This document shows positions 1,679-6,932 of a DNA stretch of 64,000 bases, in pieces. The notes beneath the pieces were generated by a model. That model made no database searches. It saw only the letters and a program-made list of their open reading frames with translations, and had not been told where the DNA came from. Origin of the DNA: Fodinicola acaciae (GTDB taxonomy: Bacteria; Actinomycetota; Actinomycetes; Mycobacteriales; HKI-0501); assembly GCF_010993745.1 (NCBI RefSeq), contig NZ_WOTN01000003.1, forward strand, positions 1,488,001-1,552,000, read 5' to 3'. The position numbers were made by a program, and so were the translations under genes. The stretch's first letter is position 1. The number at the start of each line of letters is the position of its first letter.

Positions 1679-1777
1679 ATGTTCGCTGCTTTTGAACCCC
1701 ACGGGCAGCGGATCTGGTCGGCGGATGAGCTGGGGAGGCCTCCGGTGCTGGTGCCGCTTTGTCGCGGGGTGGCATGA
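1679..1777 (+). CDS. Mini-ORF (32 aa) with good RBS, first in the radical SAM operon
   Basis: ATG at 1679 directly follows GGGTGGGG. The 32-residue product begins MFAAFEPHGQRIW and has no recognised domain. Its TGA (1775-1777) overlaps the ATG of the next mini-ORF in ATGA, so ribosomes would pass on to the following frames. It may be a real peptide, the remnant of a longer gene, or a translational leader that sets expression of the radical SAM enzyme. It follows a 37-base gap after the previous gene. Confidence 0.4.
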   Translation: MFAAFEPHGQRIWSADELGRPPVLVPLCRGVA

Positions 1778-1875
1778 GCCCGGAGGTTCTTCCGCAAGCT
1801 CAGGCGCTGGCATTTCGAGCATCCATCTCGATTTGCGAGAACTCCTGTCGGAGTTCGGAAAGGTACGCACCATGA
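1774..1875 (+). CDS. Mini-ORF (33 aa) with two Cys, coupled to radical SAM gene; possible precursor peptide
   Basis: The frame begins at ATG 1774, overlapping the stop of the previous mini-ORF. It ends in TGA 1873-1875, which overlaps the ATG of the radical SAM gene. The C-terminal part reads S-I-C-E-N-S-C-R-S-S-E-R-Y-A-P. A short peptide with clustered Cys, Ser and Tyr directly before a SPASM radical SAM enzyme is the typical layout of a ribosomally made, modified peptide. No leader motif of a known RiPP class was recognised, so this remains an inference; a translational-coupling leader is the main alternative. Confidence 0.4.
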   Translation: MSPEVLPQAQALAFRASISICENSCRSSERYAP

Positions 1876-2981
1876 AGCGATCCCTGCTGATCGACACGCA
1901 CGCCAGTTCCTGCTATTTCCGTACGTCGGTCGCCGGCGACGGCCGTAAGGCGCTGGTGCAGATCACCGAGCGCTGCAACCTGCACTGCGCGCATTGCTTT
2001 GTATCGTCAGGAAACTGGGGTGAGCACCTGGCGCTCGACGACTTTGCCGGCAAGGTGCTGCCTCGGTTGCAGGCGGCGCGCGTGGAGCGCATCACCTTGA
2101 CCGGCGGCGAGCCCTTTGTCCATCCGCAGCTGCGCGAGATCTGCACGGCCGTGACGGATTCGGGGCTGCCGCTCGGCATCTGCACCAACGCCACACAGAC
2201 CAGCGATGACGACATTTCGTTTTTGGAGCAATTAGGCAACGTGCATGTCAACGTCAGCTTCGACGGCTTCCGGCAGGAAAGCCATGGGAAGTTCCGCGGG
2301 AACCAGGCCTCGTTCGAGACGACCGTAGACACGACACGGAAATTCGCAGCAGCTGGATTGCTGCAAGGGTTGTTGTCGACGCCGAACGCCTTGACCGCCG
2401 TGGACGAGTTCGCCGCGCTGTGTGAGTTCGCGGTCGAGGTCGGCGCCGAGTACGTGCTCATGAATCCGCTGTCCTCATTTGGGCGAGGCGTCAAGAGTCA
2501 AGGCCGGCTGGCGGCCAACGCCGACAAGATGCGCGCCATCCGTACGGTGACGGAGCGCTTCGCCGAGCGCGGTCTCGACCTGGTGCATATCCGGTTTCCC
2601 AACGAGGACAAGCCACTGGCCGGCTGCGACGCCGGTAAGCTGATCTACGTCTTCGCCGACGGCGCCACCGCGATCTGTCCCTACTTGGTCTTTGCGGCAC
2701 GGACACCGCAGTCGCCGTACGCCGACAGTGAGTTTCTGGTCGGCAACATTCTCAATGAAGAAGTCGCGCATGCGCTCGACCAATATGACTTGGCGAGCCG
2801 TCTGCGGATGGGAACGAACGCTACCTGCACCGCGTGTGGCCTGAATAGCGCATGTGGCAAGGGATGTCCAGCCGCACTCATCTCACGCGGGCTGCGTATC
2901 GGCGAAGTTGACACCGAGCAGTGTCCGCTGCCAAACAGACAACCGTTGCTGCAAATTGGGCGGAGACCAAGTGACCAGTAA
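1872..2981 (+). CDS. Radical SAM/SPASM domain enzyme
   Basis: The protein has 369 residues. Cys35-x3-Cys39-x2-Cys42 (CNLHCAHC) is the canonical site for the SAM-cleaving 4Fe-4S cluster. It is followed by the GGEP motif (TLTGGEPFVHP) and the usual beta-alpha barrel elements. The C-terminus has CDAGK, DGATAICPYL and C-x2-C-x5-C-x3-C with a last Cys 18 residues on, which matches a SPASM domain with auxiliary clusters. SPASM enzymes mostly modify peptides or proteins and activate sulfatases; a few act on small molecules. Nothing here fixes the substrate. ATG 1872 is coupled to a mini-ORF, and the 3' end overlaps the kinase gene by 11 bases. It is not viperin-like, because viperins lack SPASM. Confidence 0.88.
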   Translation: MKRSLLIDTHASSCYFRTSVAGDGRKALVQITERCNLHCAHCFVSSGNWGEHLALDDFAGKVLPRLQAARVERITLTGGEPFVHPQLREICTAVTDSGLPLGICTNATQTSDDDISFLEQLGNVHVNVSFDGFRQESHGKFRGNQASFETTVDTTRKFAAAGLLQGLLSTPNALTAVDEFAALCEFAVEVGAEYVLMNPLSSFGRGVKSQGRLAANADKMRAIRTVTERFAERGLDLVHIRFPNEDKPLAGCDAGKLIYVFADGATAICPYLVFAARTPQSPYADSEFLVGNILNEEVAHALDQYDLASRLRMGTNATCTACGLNSACGKGCPAALISRGLRIGEVDTEQCPLPNRQPLLQIGRRPSDQ

Positions 2982-3588
2982 GACCGATGTGCGCGGCTTG
3001 TTCGTGGCCATCGAGGGACCGAACGGCGTCGGCAAGACCACCGTCTGCGCCGAGCTGGCCGCGCAGCTCCGGGAGCGCGGCCTGTCCGTCCATCCGACGA
3101 CGGAACCGTCCGCTACGCCGCTGGGGCGATTGCTGCGCTCGGGTGAAGCCACGCTGCAGGGCCGCGCGCTGGCGCTCGGTGTCGCCGCCGACCGGTACGC
3201 GCATCTGGAGGGAGAGGTTGGCCCCGCCGTTGACGCCGGCCAGTACGTGCTGTCAGACCGCTATGTGCAGTCGTCGCTGGTGCTGCAACGCCTCGATGGC
3301 ATGTCCGTGGCCGAGATCTGGAGCTACAACCGCTACGTTCGGCGGCCGGACCTGTCGGTGTACCTCAGCGAGAGCCCCGAACGGATTGCCGTACGACTGG
3401 CTGAGCGGCGGCAGCGGTCGCGCCTGGAAACGGCCGGCTCGCCAGAACGAGAATTGCGGCTCTACCGCGAGGCGTACGAGTTCCTGCAGGCGCATGGCTG
3501 GACGCAAATCATCGTGAAGTGCCGGGGTCAAACGCCAGCGCGGATTGCGCACCGTATCGTCACACATCTTCACCTGCTCACGAAGTAG
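2971..3588 (+). CDS. Thymidylate kinase-like nucleoside monophosphate kinase
   Basis: From GTG 2971, inside the end of the radical SAM gene, the product has 205 residues, the usual dTMP kinase length. The P-loop is GPNGVGKT at residues 16-23. Further family motifs are ADRYAHLE and SDRYVQSSLVLQ (the DRY motif), PDLSVYL, and an Arg-rich LID (RLAERRQRSRLE). The enzyme should transfer phosphate from ATP to a nucleoside monophosphate. As the host must have its own tmk, this copy probably serves a special substrate of the operon. Overlap with the radical SAM gene argues for a joint task. Confidence 0.82.
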   Translation: MTSKTDVRGLFVAIEGPNGVGKTTVCAELAAQLRERGLSVHPTTEPSATPLGRLLRSGEATLQGRALALGVAADRYAHLEGEVGPAVDAGQYVLSDRYVQSSLVLQRLDGMSVAEIWSYNRYVRRPDLSVYLSESPERIAVRLAERRQRSRLETAGSPERELRLYREAYEFLQAHGWTQIIVKCRGQTPARIAHRIVTHLHLLTK

Positions 3589-3606
3589 CTCGCCGGAGGA
3601 GCGACA

Positions 3607-4410
3607 ATGCTGTCGATCTTGACCGTCAACATCGGGGCTGCCGCGCGACAGCGGGCCGAAGCGCTGCTGGGGTGGCTGGCGGCGCGGCCGGAGGATGTCT
3701 TCGTCCTGACTGAGACCAGCGGCGGGCCGGGAACGGCGTACCTGCTGGAGCAGTTTCGTGCTGCGGGCTTCGCGGTGGCGTACGCAGCCGACAGCAGCGG
3801 CGACCGCGGCACGGCGGTGGTCAGCCGGGTCAAGGTGGAACGGACACTGGATGAGCTGACCAGCGGCGTCAGCTTGCCGGGGCGGGTGGCCGGCGTCGAG
3901 CTGGCCACCACGCCGCGTACGGCGGTGCTCGGGGTGTACGTGCCGAGCCGGGACCGCAGCGTAGACAAGATCGAGAAGAAGGAGCGGTTCATTAGCTCGC
4001 TGCTGGCGGGGTTGGACAAACTGCCGGACGAGCTACGCGAGCGGTTGGTGGTCGGCGGGGACTACAACGTCATCGCGCGGGACCACCAACCGTTGCACGC
4101 GGGGTTTCTGCCGTTCGAGTTCGGACTGCTGGAGACGCTGGAGAGCCACGGGTTCGTCGACGCGTACGCGCGGTGCTCACCGGGTGAGCAGGCGTACAGC
4201 TGGATTGGTCGGACGAACGACGGCTACCGGTACGACTACTTCCACGTCGGTGCCAAGCTCGGCGGCAGCATCGCCGGCTGTGCGTACCTGCACGAGACCC
4301 GCGAACAGCGGCTGACAGACCACGCTGCGGTGACGCTCAGCTTGGAGATCGCCAAGGTGGAGCGACTGGAGACCAGCGACCCGACTGCCGCCGGCGACGG
4401 GCTGTTTTAG
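3607..4410 (+). CDS. Endonuclease/exonuclease/phosphatase (DNase I-like) family protein
   Basis: The protein has 267 residues and starts at ATG 3607 behind GGAGG, 18 bases after the kinase gene. The metal and catalytic residues of the EEP fold are present: N8 in LTVNI, E36 in LTETS, D152 and N154 in GGDYNVI, the YRYDYFHV strand, and D238-H239 in LTDHAAV. EEP enzymes hydrolyse phosphodiesters or phosphomonoesters in DNA, RNA, inositol phosphates or nucleotide conjugates. No export signal is seen, so it should act in the cytoplasm. It overlaps the 3' end of the convergent CYTH gene by 4 bases. Confidence 0.8.
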   Translation: MLSILTVNIGAAARQRAEALLGWLAARPEDVFVLTETSGGPGTAYLLEQFRAAGFAVAYAADSSGDRGTAVVSRVKVERTLDELTSGVSLPGRVAGVELATTPRTAVLGVYVPSRDRSVDKIEKKERFISSLLAGLDKLPDELRERLVVGGDYNVIARDHQPLHAGFLPFEFGLLETLESHGFVDAYARCSPGEQAYSWIGRTNDGYRYDYFHVGAKLGGSIAGCAYLHETREQRLTDHAAVTLSLEIAKVERLETSDPTAAGDGLF

Positions 4411-4961
4411 GCCGAGACCAACGCGGCACGGACCAGCGAGTCGTAGGTGTCGGTGGTGCGCTCCACGTCGAGGTTCAGCGAGCGTACGAAGCGGTCGAGC
4501 TCGGCTTGGACTTCGAGACCGGGCCGGCCCGGCGGTACGACGGTTTCGGCTTCCAGGAACGAGCCGGCGTGCTCGACTTCATCCAGGCACAGCGACAAGT
4601 CGCCGCGGGCCGCGGTGCGGCGCGACTTCACGATGCGGACGGTTGGCCGGAAGCCCATGGCCAGCAGCGCGGCGTGCATCTCATCGCGGTCAGCGACCTC
4701 AGTTTCGTGCTCCAGGCAGGCCATCTCGTTGTCTTGGGGCTTCTTCAGGGTGAAGAGGTGGCGGCCCAGCTGCGTACGAAGTCGCGCGAAGGCCACGCCG
4801 AGCTTGGGCTGGCCGTAGTCCCAGCCAGGCTCGGCGTACGCCTGGTCGTCCTGGTGAACCGGTGGCGAGAGGTGGAAGCCGTGGCCGGCAAGCTGGTCGA
4901 CAGCGGCCGCGGTGTCGTGGAGGCGGTACTTGACCTCGATCTCACGCCGCTGGATGGGCAT
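4407..4961 (-). CDS. CYTH domain protein (class IV adenylate cyclase / triphosphatase-like)
   Basis: The 184-residue product starts at ATG 4961 with GGGGAG about 5 bases upstream. The ExExK signature is REIEVKYRL near the N-terminus. The RLR, LFTLKKP, HETEV and CLDEVEHAGSFLEAE segments supply the charged strands of the triphosphate tunnel. CYTH proteins bind triphosphates with divalent metal and act as cyclases, thiamine triphosphatases or other triphosphatases. The gene is convergent with the EEP gene, so it is transcribed separately. A role in handling a nucleotide triphosphate made by the neighbours is inference. Confidence 0.8.
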   Translation of the reverse strand: MPIQRREIEVKYRLHDTAAAVDQLAGHGFHLSPPVHQDDQAYAEPGWDYGQPKLGVAFARLRTQLGRHLFTLKKPQDNEMACLEHETEVADRDEMHAALLAMGFRPTVRIVKSRRTAARGDLSLCLDEVEHAGSFLEAETVVPPGRPGLEVQAELDRFVRSLNLDVERTTDTYDSLVRAALVSA

Positions 4962-5432: not shown

Positions 5433-6932
5433 ATGAAACTGAACCTTTTCAGAATTCCAGAGCCTGCCGTGAAGGCGCTTAGGAAGAAGTTCATGGACAG
5501 CGGCATGGTCGTCACCAAACGCGAGTCCCAGGCCGGCTGGCGCGGAGCCTTCTATTACTCGGCTGGCCCAGCGCGCAAGGTCAGCTGGGCCGAGACGTTT
5601 CGTGACTACCTTGAAGGCCAGCAGTTGCCCTTAAATCGCAACGCCTTCGCGGCGTTCATCTTCACCCGAAAAGAAGACTGCTTTGTACTGAGTTTCGGCA
5701 AGACGCACTTCTTTATCCGTCCGTACTGTGACTATGACTTCGGCATCGAGCTCGCGAAACGAATAGCGGACGAAAACGACAGTCGGCAAACAGCGTCGCG
5801 CCGATACCAGACGCGCCGTAAGAAGGACATCAAGAGTTATGCGACGGACACGCCGTTGGACGTGGAAAGCGGCGAGGCCGTCGAGTACCTCCAGATGGGC
5901 ATCGTTACGTCCAAGCGTGAACGCTTTGGGGTGGCGGGCAAGTTCGGTACGTCGGCCCTGCTCCAACCCGACATTGAGACCAGCGAGATTGGTAAGCTCT
6001 TGACTGATCTCGTTGATGTGCTCGCCGAGCCAGAGCAGTTTCCGCTGCCGCGGACAACCACGATCAAGGACGAGGACGAGATCGCACACTTCGATGAGCT
6101 GCTGCTTGATGAGCTGACAAGTGACGCCGCGACATCCGAGCTTACCCACAACTCTTATGACCTCTACGGTGTGGACTTCATCTTCAACGAAGATGGCAAA
6201 TTTGTCGTGAGCTGTCGCGGTGGCGGGCCACGAACCACCTACGACCATCTGACGATTCAGGATCTCCGCACCTACATCCAGGTCAACAAAATTAGCCGCG
6301 ATTCCATCTTGAATATTCGGATTCATCACGAGCCCGACGACGCTACGCCGTACACCAAGCCACTCAAAGAGTCCATCGACTTCATTGCCGATGACGAGCA
6401 GGTCCTTCTAACTGGCGGCCAGTGGACGAAATTCAACCAGGATTACCTGAAGTTCCTCGACCAAAGCATCGCCGCCATCGACATGGAGCCCGTCGAAGCT
6501 GAGTTCGCCAAGATCGTTGGCGGTGAGCCGGCATTCAACATCTCCGCCGCAGTTAAGCGTGCCGGGTACGCCGTCGCCGACAAGGACTTCTCGATATTCA
6601 AGACCCGATCGAGCACGCCAGTGGAGGCGTGGGATCTCAGCCGCGATGGCTGCGTCTATGCGGTTAAGTTTGGCACCCCGCAGAAACTCGGTTATGTCTG
6701 CGACCAGGCGCTCAACGTCCTGGAACTGATTCGCAACCGCGCCAACGTCAACGACATCCCGGACTTTACAAGCTACTGCCTCTGGTTTGGTTACGAAGCG
6801 AAGAGACCACTGACGGACCTGCGCGCTAGCGGCTCGATCATCTTGAAGCAGAAGATTGACAACTGGGCGCGGAAGGCGCGCGACCTCGGTATTCGGCCGG
6901 TCATCAAGTTGAGCCATCGGCCCAAGAGCTAG
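5433..6932 (+). CDS. TIGR04141/DUF6119 family sporadically distributed protein
   Basis: The product has 499 residues and starts at ATG 5433 with GAAGGTG upstream. The pattern FVLSFGKTHFFIRPYCDYDF with GIELAKRI, then a short basic stretch and GVAGKFGTSALLQ, matches my memory of the TIGR04141/DUF6119 family of ~500-550-residue proteins scattered in islands and plasmids. Their function is not established. No membrane segment or catalytic motif is obvious. It has its own upstream region and stands alone between convergent neighbours, like an independent cargo gene. Its GC content appears slightly lower than that of the surrounding genes. Confidence 0.6.
   Translation: MKLNLFRIPEPAVKALRKKFMDSGMVVTKRESQAGWRGAFYYSAGPARKVSWAETFRDYLEGQQLPLNRNAFAAFIFTRKEDCFVLSFGKTHFFIRPYCDYDFGIELAKRIADENDSRQTASRRYQTRRKKDIKSYATDTPLDVESGEAVEYLQMGIVTSKRERFGVAGKFGTSALLQPDIETSEIGKLLTDLVDVLAEPEQFPLPRTTTIKDEDEIAHFDELLLDELTSDAATSELTHNSYDLYGVDFIFNEDGKFVVSCRGGGPRTTYDHLTIQDLRTYIQVNKISRDSILNIRIHHEPDDATPYTKPLKESIDFIADDEQVLLTGGQWTKFNQDYLKFLDQSIAAIDMEPVEAEFAKIVGGEPAFNISAAVKRAGYAVADKDFSIFKTRSSTPVEAWDLSRDGCVYAVKFGTPQKLGYVCDQALNVLELIRNRANVNDIPDFTSYCLWFGYEAKRPLTDLRASGSIILKQKIDNWARKARDLGIRPVIKLSHRPKS

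What the first reader, a model, noticed from the sequence alone, without database searches (positions are those of the whole stretch)
1679..4961. Radical SAM/SPASM - nucleotide kinase - EEP - CYTH module on an integrative element
Seen: two mini-ORFs, a SPASM radical SAM enzyme, a dTMP-kinase-like protein and an EEP-fold hydrolase are linked by overlaps or an 18-base gap, with a CYTH protein convergent at the end. Known: radical SAM plus nucleotide kinase is the logic of viperin systems that make chain-terminating nucleotides, but viperins have no SPASM; SPASM enzymes mostly modify peptides. Inference: three of the four proteins handle nucleotides or phosphates, so the module may make, charge and degrade an unusual nucleotide or nucleotide-peptide. 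It may serve defence, signalling or element stability. I know of no described system with this set.
Basis: partly seen in the sequence, partly recalled or inferred. Interest (0 to 1): 0.78.

Follow-up and report, generated by a model that had tools for sequence, protein, structure and literature searches.

The report
Gene cassette for a modified nucleotide
A compact set of three to four genes that travels as a unit between very different bacteria looks like a small factory for a toxic, modified nucleotide, carrying its own DNA-repair enzyme and nucleotide-destroying enzyme as protection; no such gene set turned up in the papers searched.

Summary
The four genes are real: SPASM radical SAM (1872-2981), TMK-like kinase (2971-3588), ExoIII/APE-fold EEP protein (3607-4410) and convergent CYTH triphosphatase-fold protein (4407-4961). 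The two mini-ORFs are not conserved. The set is a genuine, sporadic cassette: 65 of 70 distinct loci with this radical SAM family carry both kinase and EEP, in six or more phyla and in more than one gene order. A fourth gene, usually present, is swappable between NTP-hydrolase folds: CYTH, MazG or Nudix. Aureispira adds a deoxynucleoside kinase. A sister cassette in Micromonospora-like genomes keeps kinase and CYTH but uses a B12-radical SAM and an AlkA-like DNA glycosylase instead of the EEP. All 23 cassette kinases examined replace the pocket tyrosine that canonical dTMP kinases keep; a separate tmk was found in four of five carrier genomes tested. Best reading: it makes and phosphorylates a modified nucleotide that harms DNA synthesis, with self-protection by triphosphate hydrolysis and DNA excision. 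The logic resembles thmABC (4'-thiothymidine) and viperin-kinase systems, but it fails a membership test for each. Product and purpose (antibiotic or anti-phage) are unproven.

The parts
1872..2981 (+). SPASM radical SAM enzyme (369 aa), core biosynthetic enzyme of the cassette
   Evidence: Pfam PF04055 2.8e-19; full 7-Cys SPASM motif and CxxxCxxC conserved in alignment; AF2 model pLDDT 85, nearest folds SkfB, SuiB, BlsE
2971..3588 (+). TMK-like nucleotide kinase (205 aa), GTG start inside the rSAM 3' end
   Evidence: PF02223 9.8e-28; nearest solved structures are bacterial dTMP kinases; Tyr100 (S. aureus numbering) replaced by Leu in 23 of 23 cassette kinases
3607..4410 (+). EEP-fold protein of the ExoIII/APE branch (267 aa), likely DNA 3'-end processing or AP endonuclease activity
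   Evidence: PF03372 2.7e-8, TIGR00633 7.7e-17 below its cut-off; catalytic residues conserved; AF2 pLDDT 93.5, nearest folds NExo 3'-phosphatase, Mth0212, APE1
4407..4961 (-). CYTH / triphosphate tunnel metalloenzyme (184 aa), convergent
   Evidence: PF01928 6.6e-13; nearest PDB entry is triphosphate tunnel metalloenzyme Saci_0718; ExExK and tunnel residues conserved, also in Ryanbacteria and Aureispira
   Evidence: no recognisable homologue upstream of rSAM in relatives
   Evidence: no recognisable homologue upstream of rSAM in relatives
5433..6932 (+). DUF6119/TIGR04141 protein; neighbour, not part of the cassette
   Evidence: PF19614 2.5e-29; no tblastn match in the related loci

Best explanation
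A self-contained nucleotide-antimetabolite cassette. Step 1 (inferred): the SPASM radical SAM enzyme alters the sugar or base of a nucleoside or nucleotide. Step 2 (inferred; kinase family shown): the TMK-like kinase, whose pocket lacks the tyrosine kept by normal dTMP kinases, phosphorylates the modified monophosphate, and host NDP kinase completes the triphosphate. Step 3 (inferred): the analogue enters or blocks growing DNA of a competitor or invading phage. Step 4 (inferred from what replaces what): the host is protected at two levels. The CYTH protein (elsewhere MazG or Nudix) destroys the analogue triphosphate, and the ExoIII/APE-like EEP protein (in the sister cassette an AlkA-like DNA glycosylase) removes the analogue or blocked 3' end from DNA. 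Shown: gene set, homology, conservation as a unit, swaps of the fourth and third genes, altered kinase pocket, intact catalytic residues. Not shown: any substrate, product or activity.
For: Unit: 65 of 70 distinct rSAM loci carry TMK and EEP within a few kb; the others are four contig ends or broken rSAM genes and one true exception, L050. Gene order changes but the set stays: TMK-rSAM-EEP-CYTH-Nudix in Ryanbacteria, CYTH-rSAM-TMK-dNK-EEP in Aureispira. Pairwise distances of rSAM, TMK and EEP correlate at r 0.82-0.86. Nucleotide theme: an added deoxynucleoside kinase (PF01712 1.6e-28) in Aureispira, MazG in Streptomyces, Nudix next to EEP in Pseudonocardiaceae/Nocardia, and a Ryanbacteria Nudix whose best NCBIfam matches include MutT and pyrimidine (d)NTP diphosphatase, all below cut-off. 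Sister cassette: B12-radical SAM (AprD4 nearest in PDB, 3.6e-16) + same kinase subfamily + AlkA-like glycosylase (profile E about 1e-6) + CYTH in four genomes, kinase nested inside the cassette clade. Kinase: Tyr100 to Leu in 23/23, canonical tmks keep Tyr; separate tmk in four of five carrier genomes tested. Decayed cassettes keep the hydrolase: own-genome second copy with truncated TMK and frameshifted EEP but intact CYTH; G218 with EEP fragment but intact Nudix. Precedent: thmABC = rSAM + kinase + NTPase makes 4'-thiothymidine and the NTPase alone gives self-resistance (PMC12691670).
Against: No product or assay. By fold the rSAM is closest to peptide-modifying SPASM enzymes (SkfB, SuiB), with the nucleoside enzyme BlsE only seventh in the list. 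Clostridia, Agreia, Gemmatimonadota and some other loci show no fourth hydrolase in the held flanks. The EEP could be a biosynthetic phosphatase rather than a DNA-repair enzyme. No exporter was seen to be conserved. The kinase pocket argument rests on two positions, and at one of them a canonical tmk also varies (Met). G161 keeps a lone EEP and other decay patterns exist, so hydrolase retention is only three cases.
Confidence: 0.6

Rival explanations
1. Nucleoside antibiotic biosynthesis with cryptic phosphorylation: the kinase primes the substrate and the EEP protein is the phosphatase that releases a free nucleoside, which leaves the cell; CYTH/MazG/Nudix give self-resistance. Same chemistry class, but EEP is biosynthetic.
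For: AbmG (albomycin) is a kinase used for cryptic phosphorylation (PMC12691670), and an HD phosphohydrolase serves oxetanocin A biosynthesis (reference list of PMC7074753); the EEP fold includes 3'-phosphatases (NExo is the best fold match).
Against: No conserved exporter seen near the cassette. The EEP belongs to the ExoIII/APE branch that acts on DNA ends, and an AlkA-like DNA glycosylase stands in the sister cassette, which lacks EEP; this fits repair better than nucleoside release.
Confidence: 0.2
2. Peptide (RiPP) pathway: the SPASM enzyme modifies a small peptide that is then nucleotidylated or degraded.
For: SPASM enzymes mostly modify peptides; fold neighbours SkfB and SuiB; one mini-ORF has an ATGA overlap with the rSAM start.
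Against: No conserved small ORF upstream of rSAM; only about 30 residues precede the radical SAM core, so no room for an RRE domain; kinase, MazG and Nudix partners do not fit.
Confidence: 0.07
3. Unusual nucleotide signalling: CYTH acts as a class IV cyclase making a cyclic nucleotide from the modified nucleotide and EEP is the phosphodiesterase.
For: CYTH scores 57.2 bits against cyaB, just under the 57.95 cut-off.
Against: CYTH is replaced by MazG or Nudix, families not known to cyclise; no receptor or effector gene is conserved nearby; closest solved CYTH is a triphosphate tunnel metalloenzyme.
Confidence: 0.05
4. DNA base hypermodification or nucleotide-pool housekeeping for a mobile element, without a toxic product.
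For: TMK-like kinases, MutT/MazG-like hydrolases and ExoIII are all DNA-metabolism families.
Against: No DNA polymerase, dNMP hydrolase or transferase conserved; one match in IMG/VR and no close match among sequenced phages; distribution sporadic (8 of 298 genomes of the order).
Confidence: 0.08

Closest known systems
thmABC, 4'-thiothymidine cluster of Photorhabdus (PMC12691670)
   Same: three-gene logic: radical SAM enzyme, nucleos(t)ide kinase, nucleoside-triphosphate hydrolase as self-resistance; genes stay together while surroundings differ
   Different: ThmB is an AbmG homologue, and AbmG is of the deoxycytidine-kinase type (PMC9032320), not TMK-like; no EEP protein reported; rSAM homology could not be compared
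Prokaryotic viperins with associated kinases (pVip/SAND)
   Same: radical SAM enzyme next to a nucleotide kinase; human CMPK2 beside viperin has a TMK-like domain (own knowledge)
   Different: this enzyme has a full SPASM domain that viperins lack, matches pVip models only over the radical SAM core (4.1e-17), and carries EEP and CYTH/MazG/Nudix partners
BlsE (cytosylglucuronate decarboxylase) and AprD4 (radical SAM diol-dehydratase)
   Same: BlsE is the nearest solved relative with a nucleoside substrate for the window's rSAM (1e-20); AprD4 is the nearest solved relative of the sister cassette's rSAM
   Different: known from blasticidin S and apramycin pathways, not from kinase/EEP/CYTH cassettes (own knowledge); similarity is superfamily-level
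ExoIII/APE1/NExo family
   Same: fold and catalytic residues
   Different: a divergent group at about 21% identity; in the order searched, its strong matches are mostly in these cassettes or their remnants, with a few other contexts
PADLOC PDC-M51B phage-defence candidate
   Same: TMK-like kinase, 4.2e-12
   Different: no other PDC-M51 component matched; likely a generic kinase match

Membership tests
Prokaryotic viperin (pVip/SAND) | radical SAM core closer to viperins than to other rSAM families | tested here: not met
   SkfB 4.8e-28 and BlsE 1e-20 precede viperins at about 1e-9 in the PDB profile search
Prokaryotic viperin (pVip/SAND) | no SPASM domain | tested here: not met
   complete SPASM cysteine set across 28 rows
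Prokaryotic viperin (pVip/SAND) | converts NTP to ddhNTP | not testable with these tools
   needs enzymology
thmABC-type 4'-thionucleoside cluster | rSAM next to a nucleos(t)ide kinase and an NTP-hydrolase family protein | tested here: met
thmABC-type 4'-thionucleoside cluster | kinase of the AbmG/deoxycytidine-kinase family | tested here: not met
   kinase is PF02223 TMK-like; only Aureispira has an extra PF01712 kinase
thmABC-type 4'-thionucleoside cluster | ThmA homology of the rSAM | not tested
SPASM RiPP maturase system | precursor peptide encoded nearby | tested here: not met
   no conserved upstream ORF in the loci inspected
SPASM RiPP maturase system | RRE domain in the enzyme | tested here: not met
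   rSAM core starts near residue 30; no N-terminal domain by Pfam or in the model
Essential dTMP kinase (tmk) | only tmk of the genome | tested here: not met
   canonical tmk elsewhere in own genome and a second PF02223 gene in four of the five other carrier genomes scanned less Aureispira, whose draft gave only the cassette kinase
Essential dTMP kinase (tmk) | Phe66-type base-stacking residue and Tyr100 in the dTMP pocket | tested here: not met
   Val/Ile/Leu/Cys/Ala at position 66 and Leu at position 100 in 23/23
ExoIII/APE family nuclease | conserved Asn, Glu, Tyr, Asp-x-Asn, Asp, Asp-His catalytic set and fold | tested here: met
   activity not tested
CYTH triphosphate tunnel metalloenzyme | ExExK motif and charged tunnel residues | tested here: met
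   E7, E9, K11, K53, R62, K73, R114, D127, E137, E139 invariant in 14 sequences
Class IV adenylate cyclase (CyaB) | NCBIfam curated score cut-off | tested here: inconclusive
   57.2 vs 57.95 bits, borderline

The most novel reading that the evidence does not exclude
A modular, horizontally moving class of bacterial cassettes that make a poison nucleotide, with a TMK-derived kinase of one clade at the core and interchangeable parts around it: the radical SAM enzyme (SPASM or B12 type), the DNA-repair enzyme (ExoIII-like or AlkA-like) and the triphosphate hydrolase (CYTH, MazG or Nudix). It would be a viperin-independent route to nucleotide analogues for immunity or warfare, with built-in two-level self-protection.
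Probability: 0.45. Interest if true: 0.88.

Novelty: new variant of a known kind. Interest (0 to 1): 0.74.

Why it matters
If right, it gives dozens of ready-made clusters, some with only three genes, for new nucleotide analogues with likely resistance genes attached, and a direct test of whether bacteria outside the viperin family defend or compete with DNA-blocking nucleotides. It also predicts that some orphan CYTH, Nudix and ExoIII-like genes are resistance remnants.

Tried and rejected
Conserved precursor peptide upstream of rSAM: none. Kinase as replacement tmk: rejected. Defence-island enrichment: a PADLOC scan of 122 neighbours against 122 control genes gave no clear excess, though Agreia has Gabija and ThsA beside it and the window's own region has a RADAR-like pair. 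Element ends: no direct repeat of 22 bp or more and no tRNA on the upstream side. CYTH genes in six genomes without the rSAM were first read as orphans; four sit in the sister cassette, one lies beside a kinase remnant at a contig end, and only G180 looks like a true orphan. Selection test on the decayed second copy: all genes look constrained, CYTH not clearly more so. Literature: no paper found describing the set; only open-licence papers were searchable.
Full report
What is there. The window encodes, on the plus strand, a 369-aa radical SAM protein (1872-2981), a 205-aa kinase (2971-3588, GTG start) and a 267-aa EEP-fold protein (3607-4410), and on the minus strand a 184-aa CYTH protein (4407-4961). 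Pfam assigns all four above cut-off; the radical SAM protein is far below the cut-off of every NCBIfam equivalog listed, so it is not one of the named families. Its C-terminal cysteines make a complete SPASM motif, invariant or nearly so in 28 relatives. The two mini-ORFs are not conserved.

It is a unit. A genome-collection scan gave about 58 close relatives (43-78% identity), and the order, phylum, plasmid and virus searches a few more. Profile searches around each found the kinase and the EEP protein in 65 of 70 distinct loci (my count from that table). The five others are L023, L059, L060 and L064 (contig ends or broken rSAM genes) and L050, a true exception. Hosts are mostly Actinomycetota, but also Clostridia, Aureispira (Bacteroidota), Ryanbacteria and another Patescibacterium, a Gemmatimonadota MAG and Dormibacterota. 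The family is rare: 8 of 298 genomes of the order, 3 of 396 of the phylum, and only the known carrier among 345 genomes of the Bacteroidota sample and among 287 of the Ryanbacteria phylum. Distances between loci agree across the three proteins (r 0.82-0.86), and gene order differs in Ryanbacteria, Aureispira and a Solirubrobacteraceae MAG, so the link looks functional rather than frozen synteny.

The fourth gene is interchangeable. CYTH is present in about 42 loci: convergent in Actinomycetota, downstream in Ryanbacteria and upstream in Aureispira, with the catalytic tunnel residues kept throughout. Streptomyces and Embleya loci have a MazG-like protein instead, and Pseudonocardiaceae/Nocardia loci a Nudix hydrolase. 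Ryanbacteria has both CYTH and a Nudix whose NCBIfam matches include MutT and pyrimidine (d)NTP diphosphatase, below their cut-offs. These are different folds with one thing in common: they hydrolyse nucleoside or inorganic polyphosphates (established family knowledge). They follow the rSAM clades in the tree. Agreia, the Clostridia, the Gemmatimonadota MAG and some others show no such gene in the held flanks. Aureispira adds a deoxynucleoside kinase (PF01712).

The third gene is interchangeable too. A search for CYTH in 298 genomes of the order gave 11, of which six lacked the rSAM. In four of these (L162-L165) the CYTH is convergent with a kinase of the same subfamily, preceded by a 504-aa B12-binding radical SAM protein (nearest solved relative AprD4) and a roughly 280-aa protein that matches AlkA-type 3-methyladenine DNA glycosylases by profile (about 1e-6; NCBIfam 1e-7 below cut-off). 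Pfam alone did not call it, so this assignment is moderate. The kinases of this sister cassette fall inside the clade of the SPASM-cassette kinases, apart from canonical tmks. So around one kinase clade, a SPASM rSAM is exchanged for a B12 rSAM and an ExoIII/APE-like protein for a DNA glycosylase. Both are base-excision-repair families, which points to DNA as the place where the product does harm (inference).

The kinase is not a housekeeping tmk. The own genome has a canonical tmk, and a second PF02223 gene exists in the Ryanbacteria, Clostridia, Gemmatimonadota and Dormibacterota carriers; the Aureispira draft gave only the cassette kinase. Against S. aureus TMK numbering, catalytic and phosphate-binding residues and Gln101 are kept, but Tyr100 is Leu in 23 of 23 cassette kinases and Phe66 is Val/Ile/Leu/Cys/Ala, while four canonical tmks keep Tyr100 (the fifth control sequence, L153, turned out to be the cassette kinase itself). 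In the M. tuberculosis enzyme Phe70 stacks on thymine and Tyr103 contacts an inhibitor in the pocket (PMC8659263). That the substrate differs from dTMP is my inference.

The EEP protein. The model is confident (pLDDT 93.5); nearest folds are NExo 3'-phosphatase, Mth0212, APE1 and ExoIII, with the catalytic set conserved. Remnants are informative: the own genome holds a second, decayed cassette (about C2:333941-335727, 80.5% DNA identity) with a truncated kinase beside a transposase, frameshifted EEP and intact CYTH; G218 keeps an intact Nudix beside an EEP fragment; G161 keeps EEP alone. Loss of maker genes with survival of a protective gene is what resistance genes do, but three cases are few and dN/dS did not separate them.

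How it most likely works. The rSAM makes a modified nucleoside or nucleotide; the altered TMK-like kinase charges it; the product poisons DNA synthesis; CYTH/MazG/Nudix destroys the triphosphate and EEP or glycosylase cleans DNA in the producer. The closest demonstrated precedent is thmABC, where rSAM + kinase + NTPase make 4'-thiothymidine in E. coli and the NTPase alone confers resistance (PMC12691670). Viperin plus kinase is the other parallel, but the enzyme here has SPASM and is closer to SkfB and BlsE than to viperins, so membership is rejected while the analogy stands.

Defence or antibiotic? Undecided. Neighbour scans showed no clear excess of defence genes over control regions. Individual loci suggest it: Gabija and ThsA flank the Agreia cassette, and a KAP-type ATPase with an adenosine-deaminase protein weakly matching RdrB lies 5-10 kb upstream of the window start. 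No exporter was seen to be conserved, which slightly favours an intracellular use.

Limits. No substrate, product or activity is shown. ThmA could not be compared. The literature search covered open-licence papers only. Gene calls in neighbours come from a simple codon-usage script, and the phylum sample sizes are small.

Noticed in passing
L139:5941-7727 (G000:C2:333941-335727): Second, decayed cassette in the same genome: truncated TMK beside a transposase, frameshifted EEP, intact CYTH; 80.5% DNA identity to the window copy.
   Followed up: yes
L162:7200-10762, L163:4483-8033, L164, L165: Sister cassette: AlkA-like glycosylase, B12-radical SAM, TMK-like kinase and convergent CYTH.
   Followed up: yes
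L104:9866-14718 (G000:C3:1477866-1482718): RADAR-like pair upstream of the window: KAP/AAA ATPase and a protein with a C-terminal adenosine deaminase domain, weak RdrB match (1.9e-8).
   Followed up: partly
L142:5988-13982 (G180:C57): A different gene cluster with two EEP proteins, Nudix, formyltransferase, DegT aminotransferase, a divergent TMK-like kinase and a radical SAM protein; perhaps a nucleotide-sugar or nucleoside pathway.
   Followed up: partly
L144:4370-8009 (G000:C3:1777370-1781009): Two further TMK-like paralogues with a Nudix-like match between them in the own genome; outside both the canonical tmk and the cassette-kinase clades.
   Followed up: partly
L051:8671-9306: Aureispira cassette carries an extra deoxynucleoside kinase (PF01712) between TMK and EEP.
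   Followed up: yes
L056:3882-4808, L062:4502-5341: Dormibacterota loci have a second EEP protein upstream of the rSAM; L062 also has a MazG-domain protein further upstream (858-1628).
   Followed up: partly
L033:322-6635: Agreia cassette follows a Gabija system and a ThsA-like gene.
   Followed up: yes
L050: Only clear case of this radical SAM family without kinase and EEP nearby, despite 7 kb and 4.4 kb flanks.
   Followed up: no
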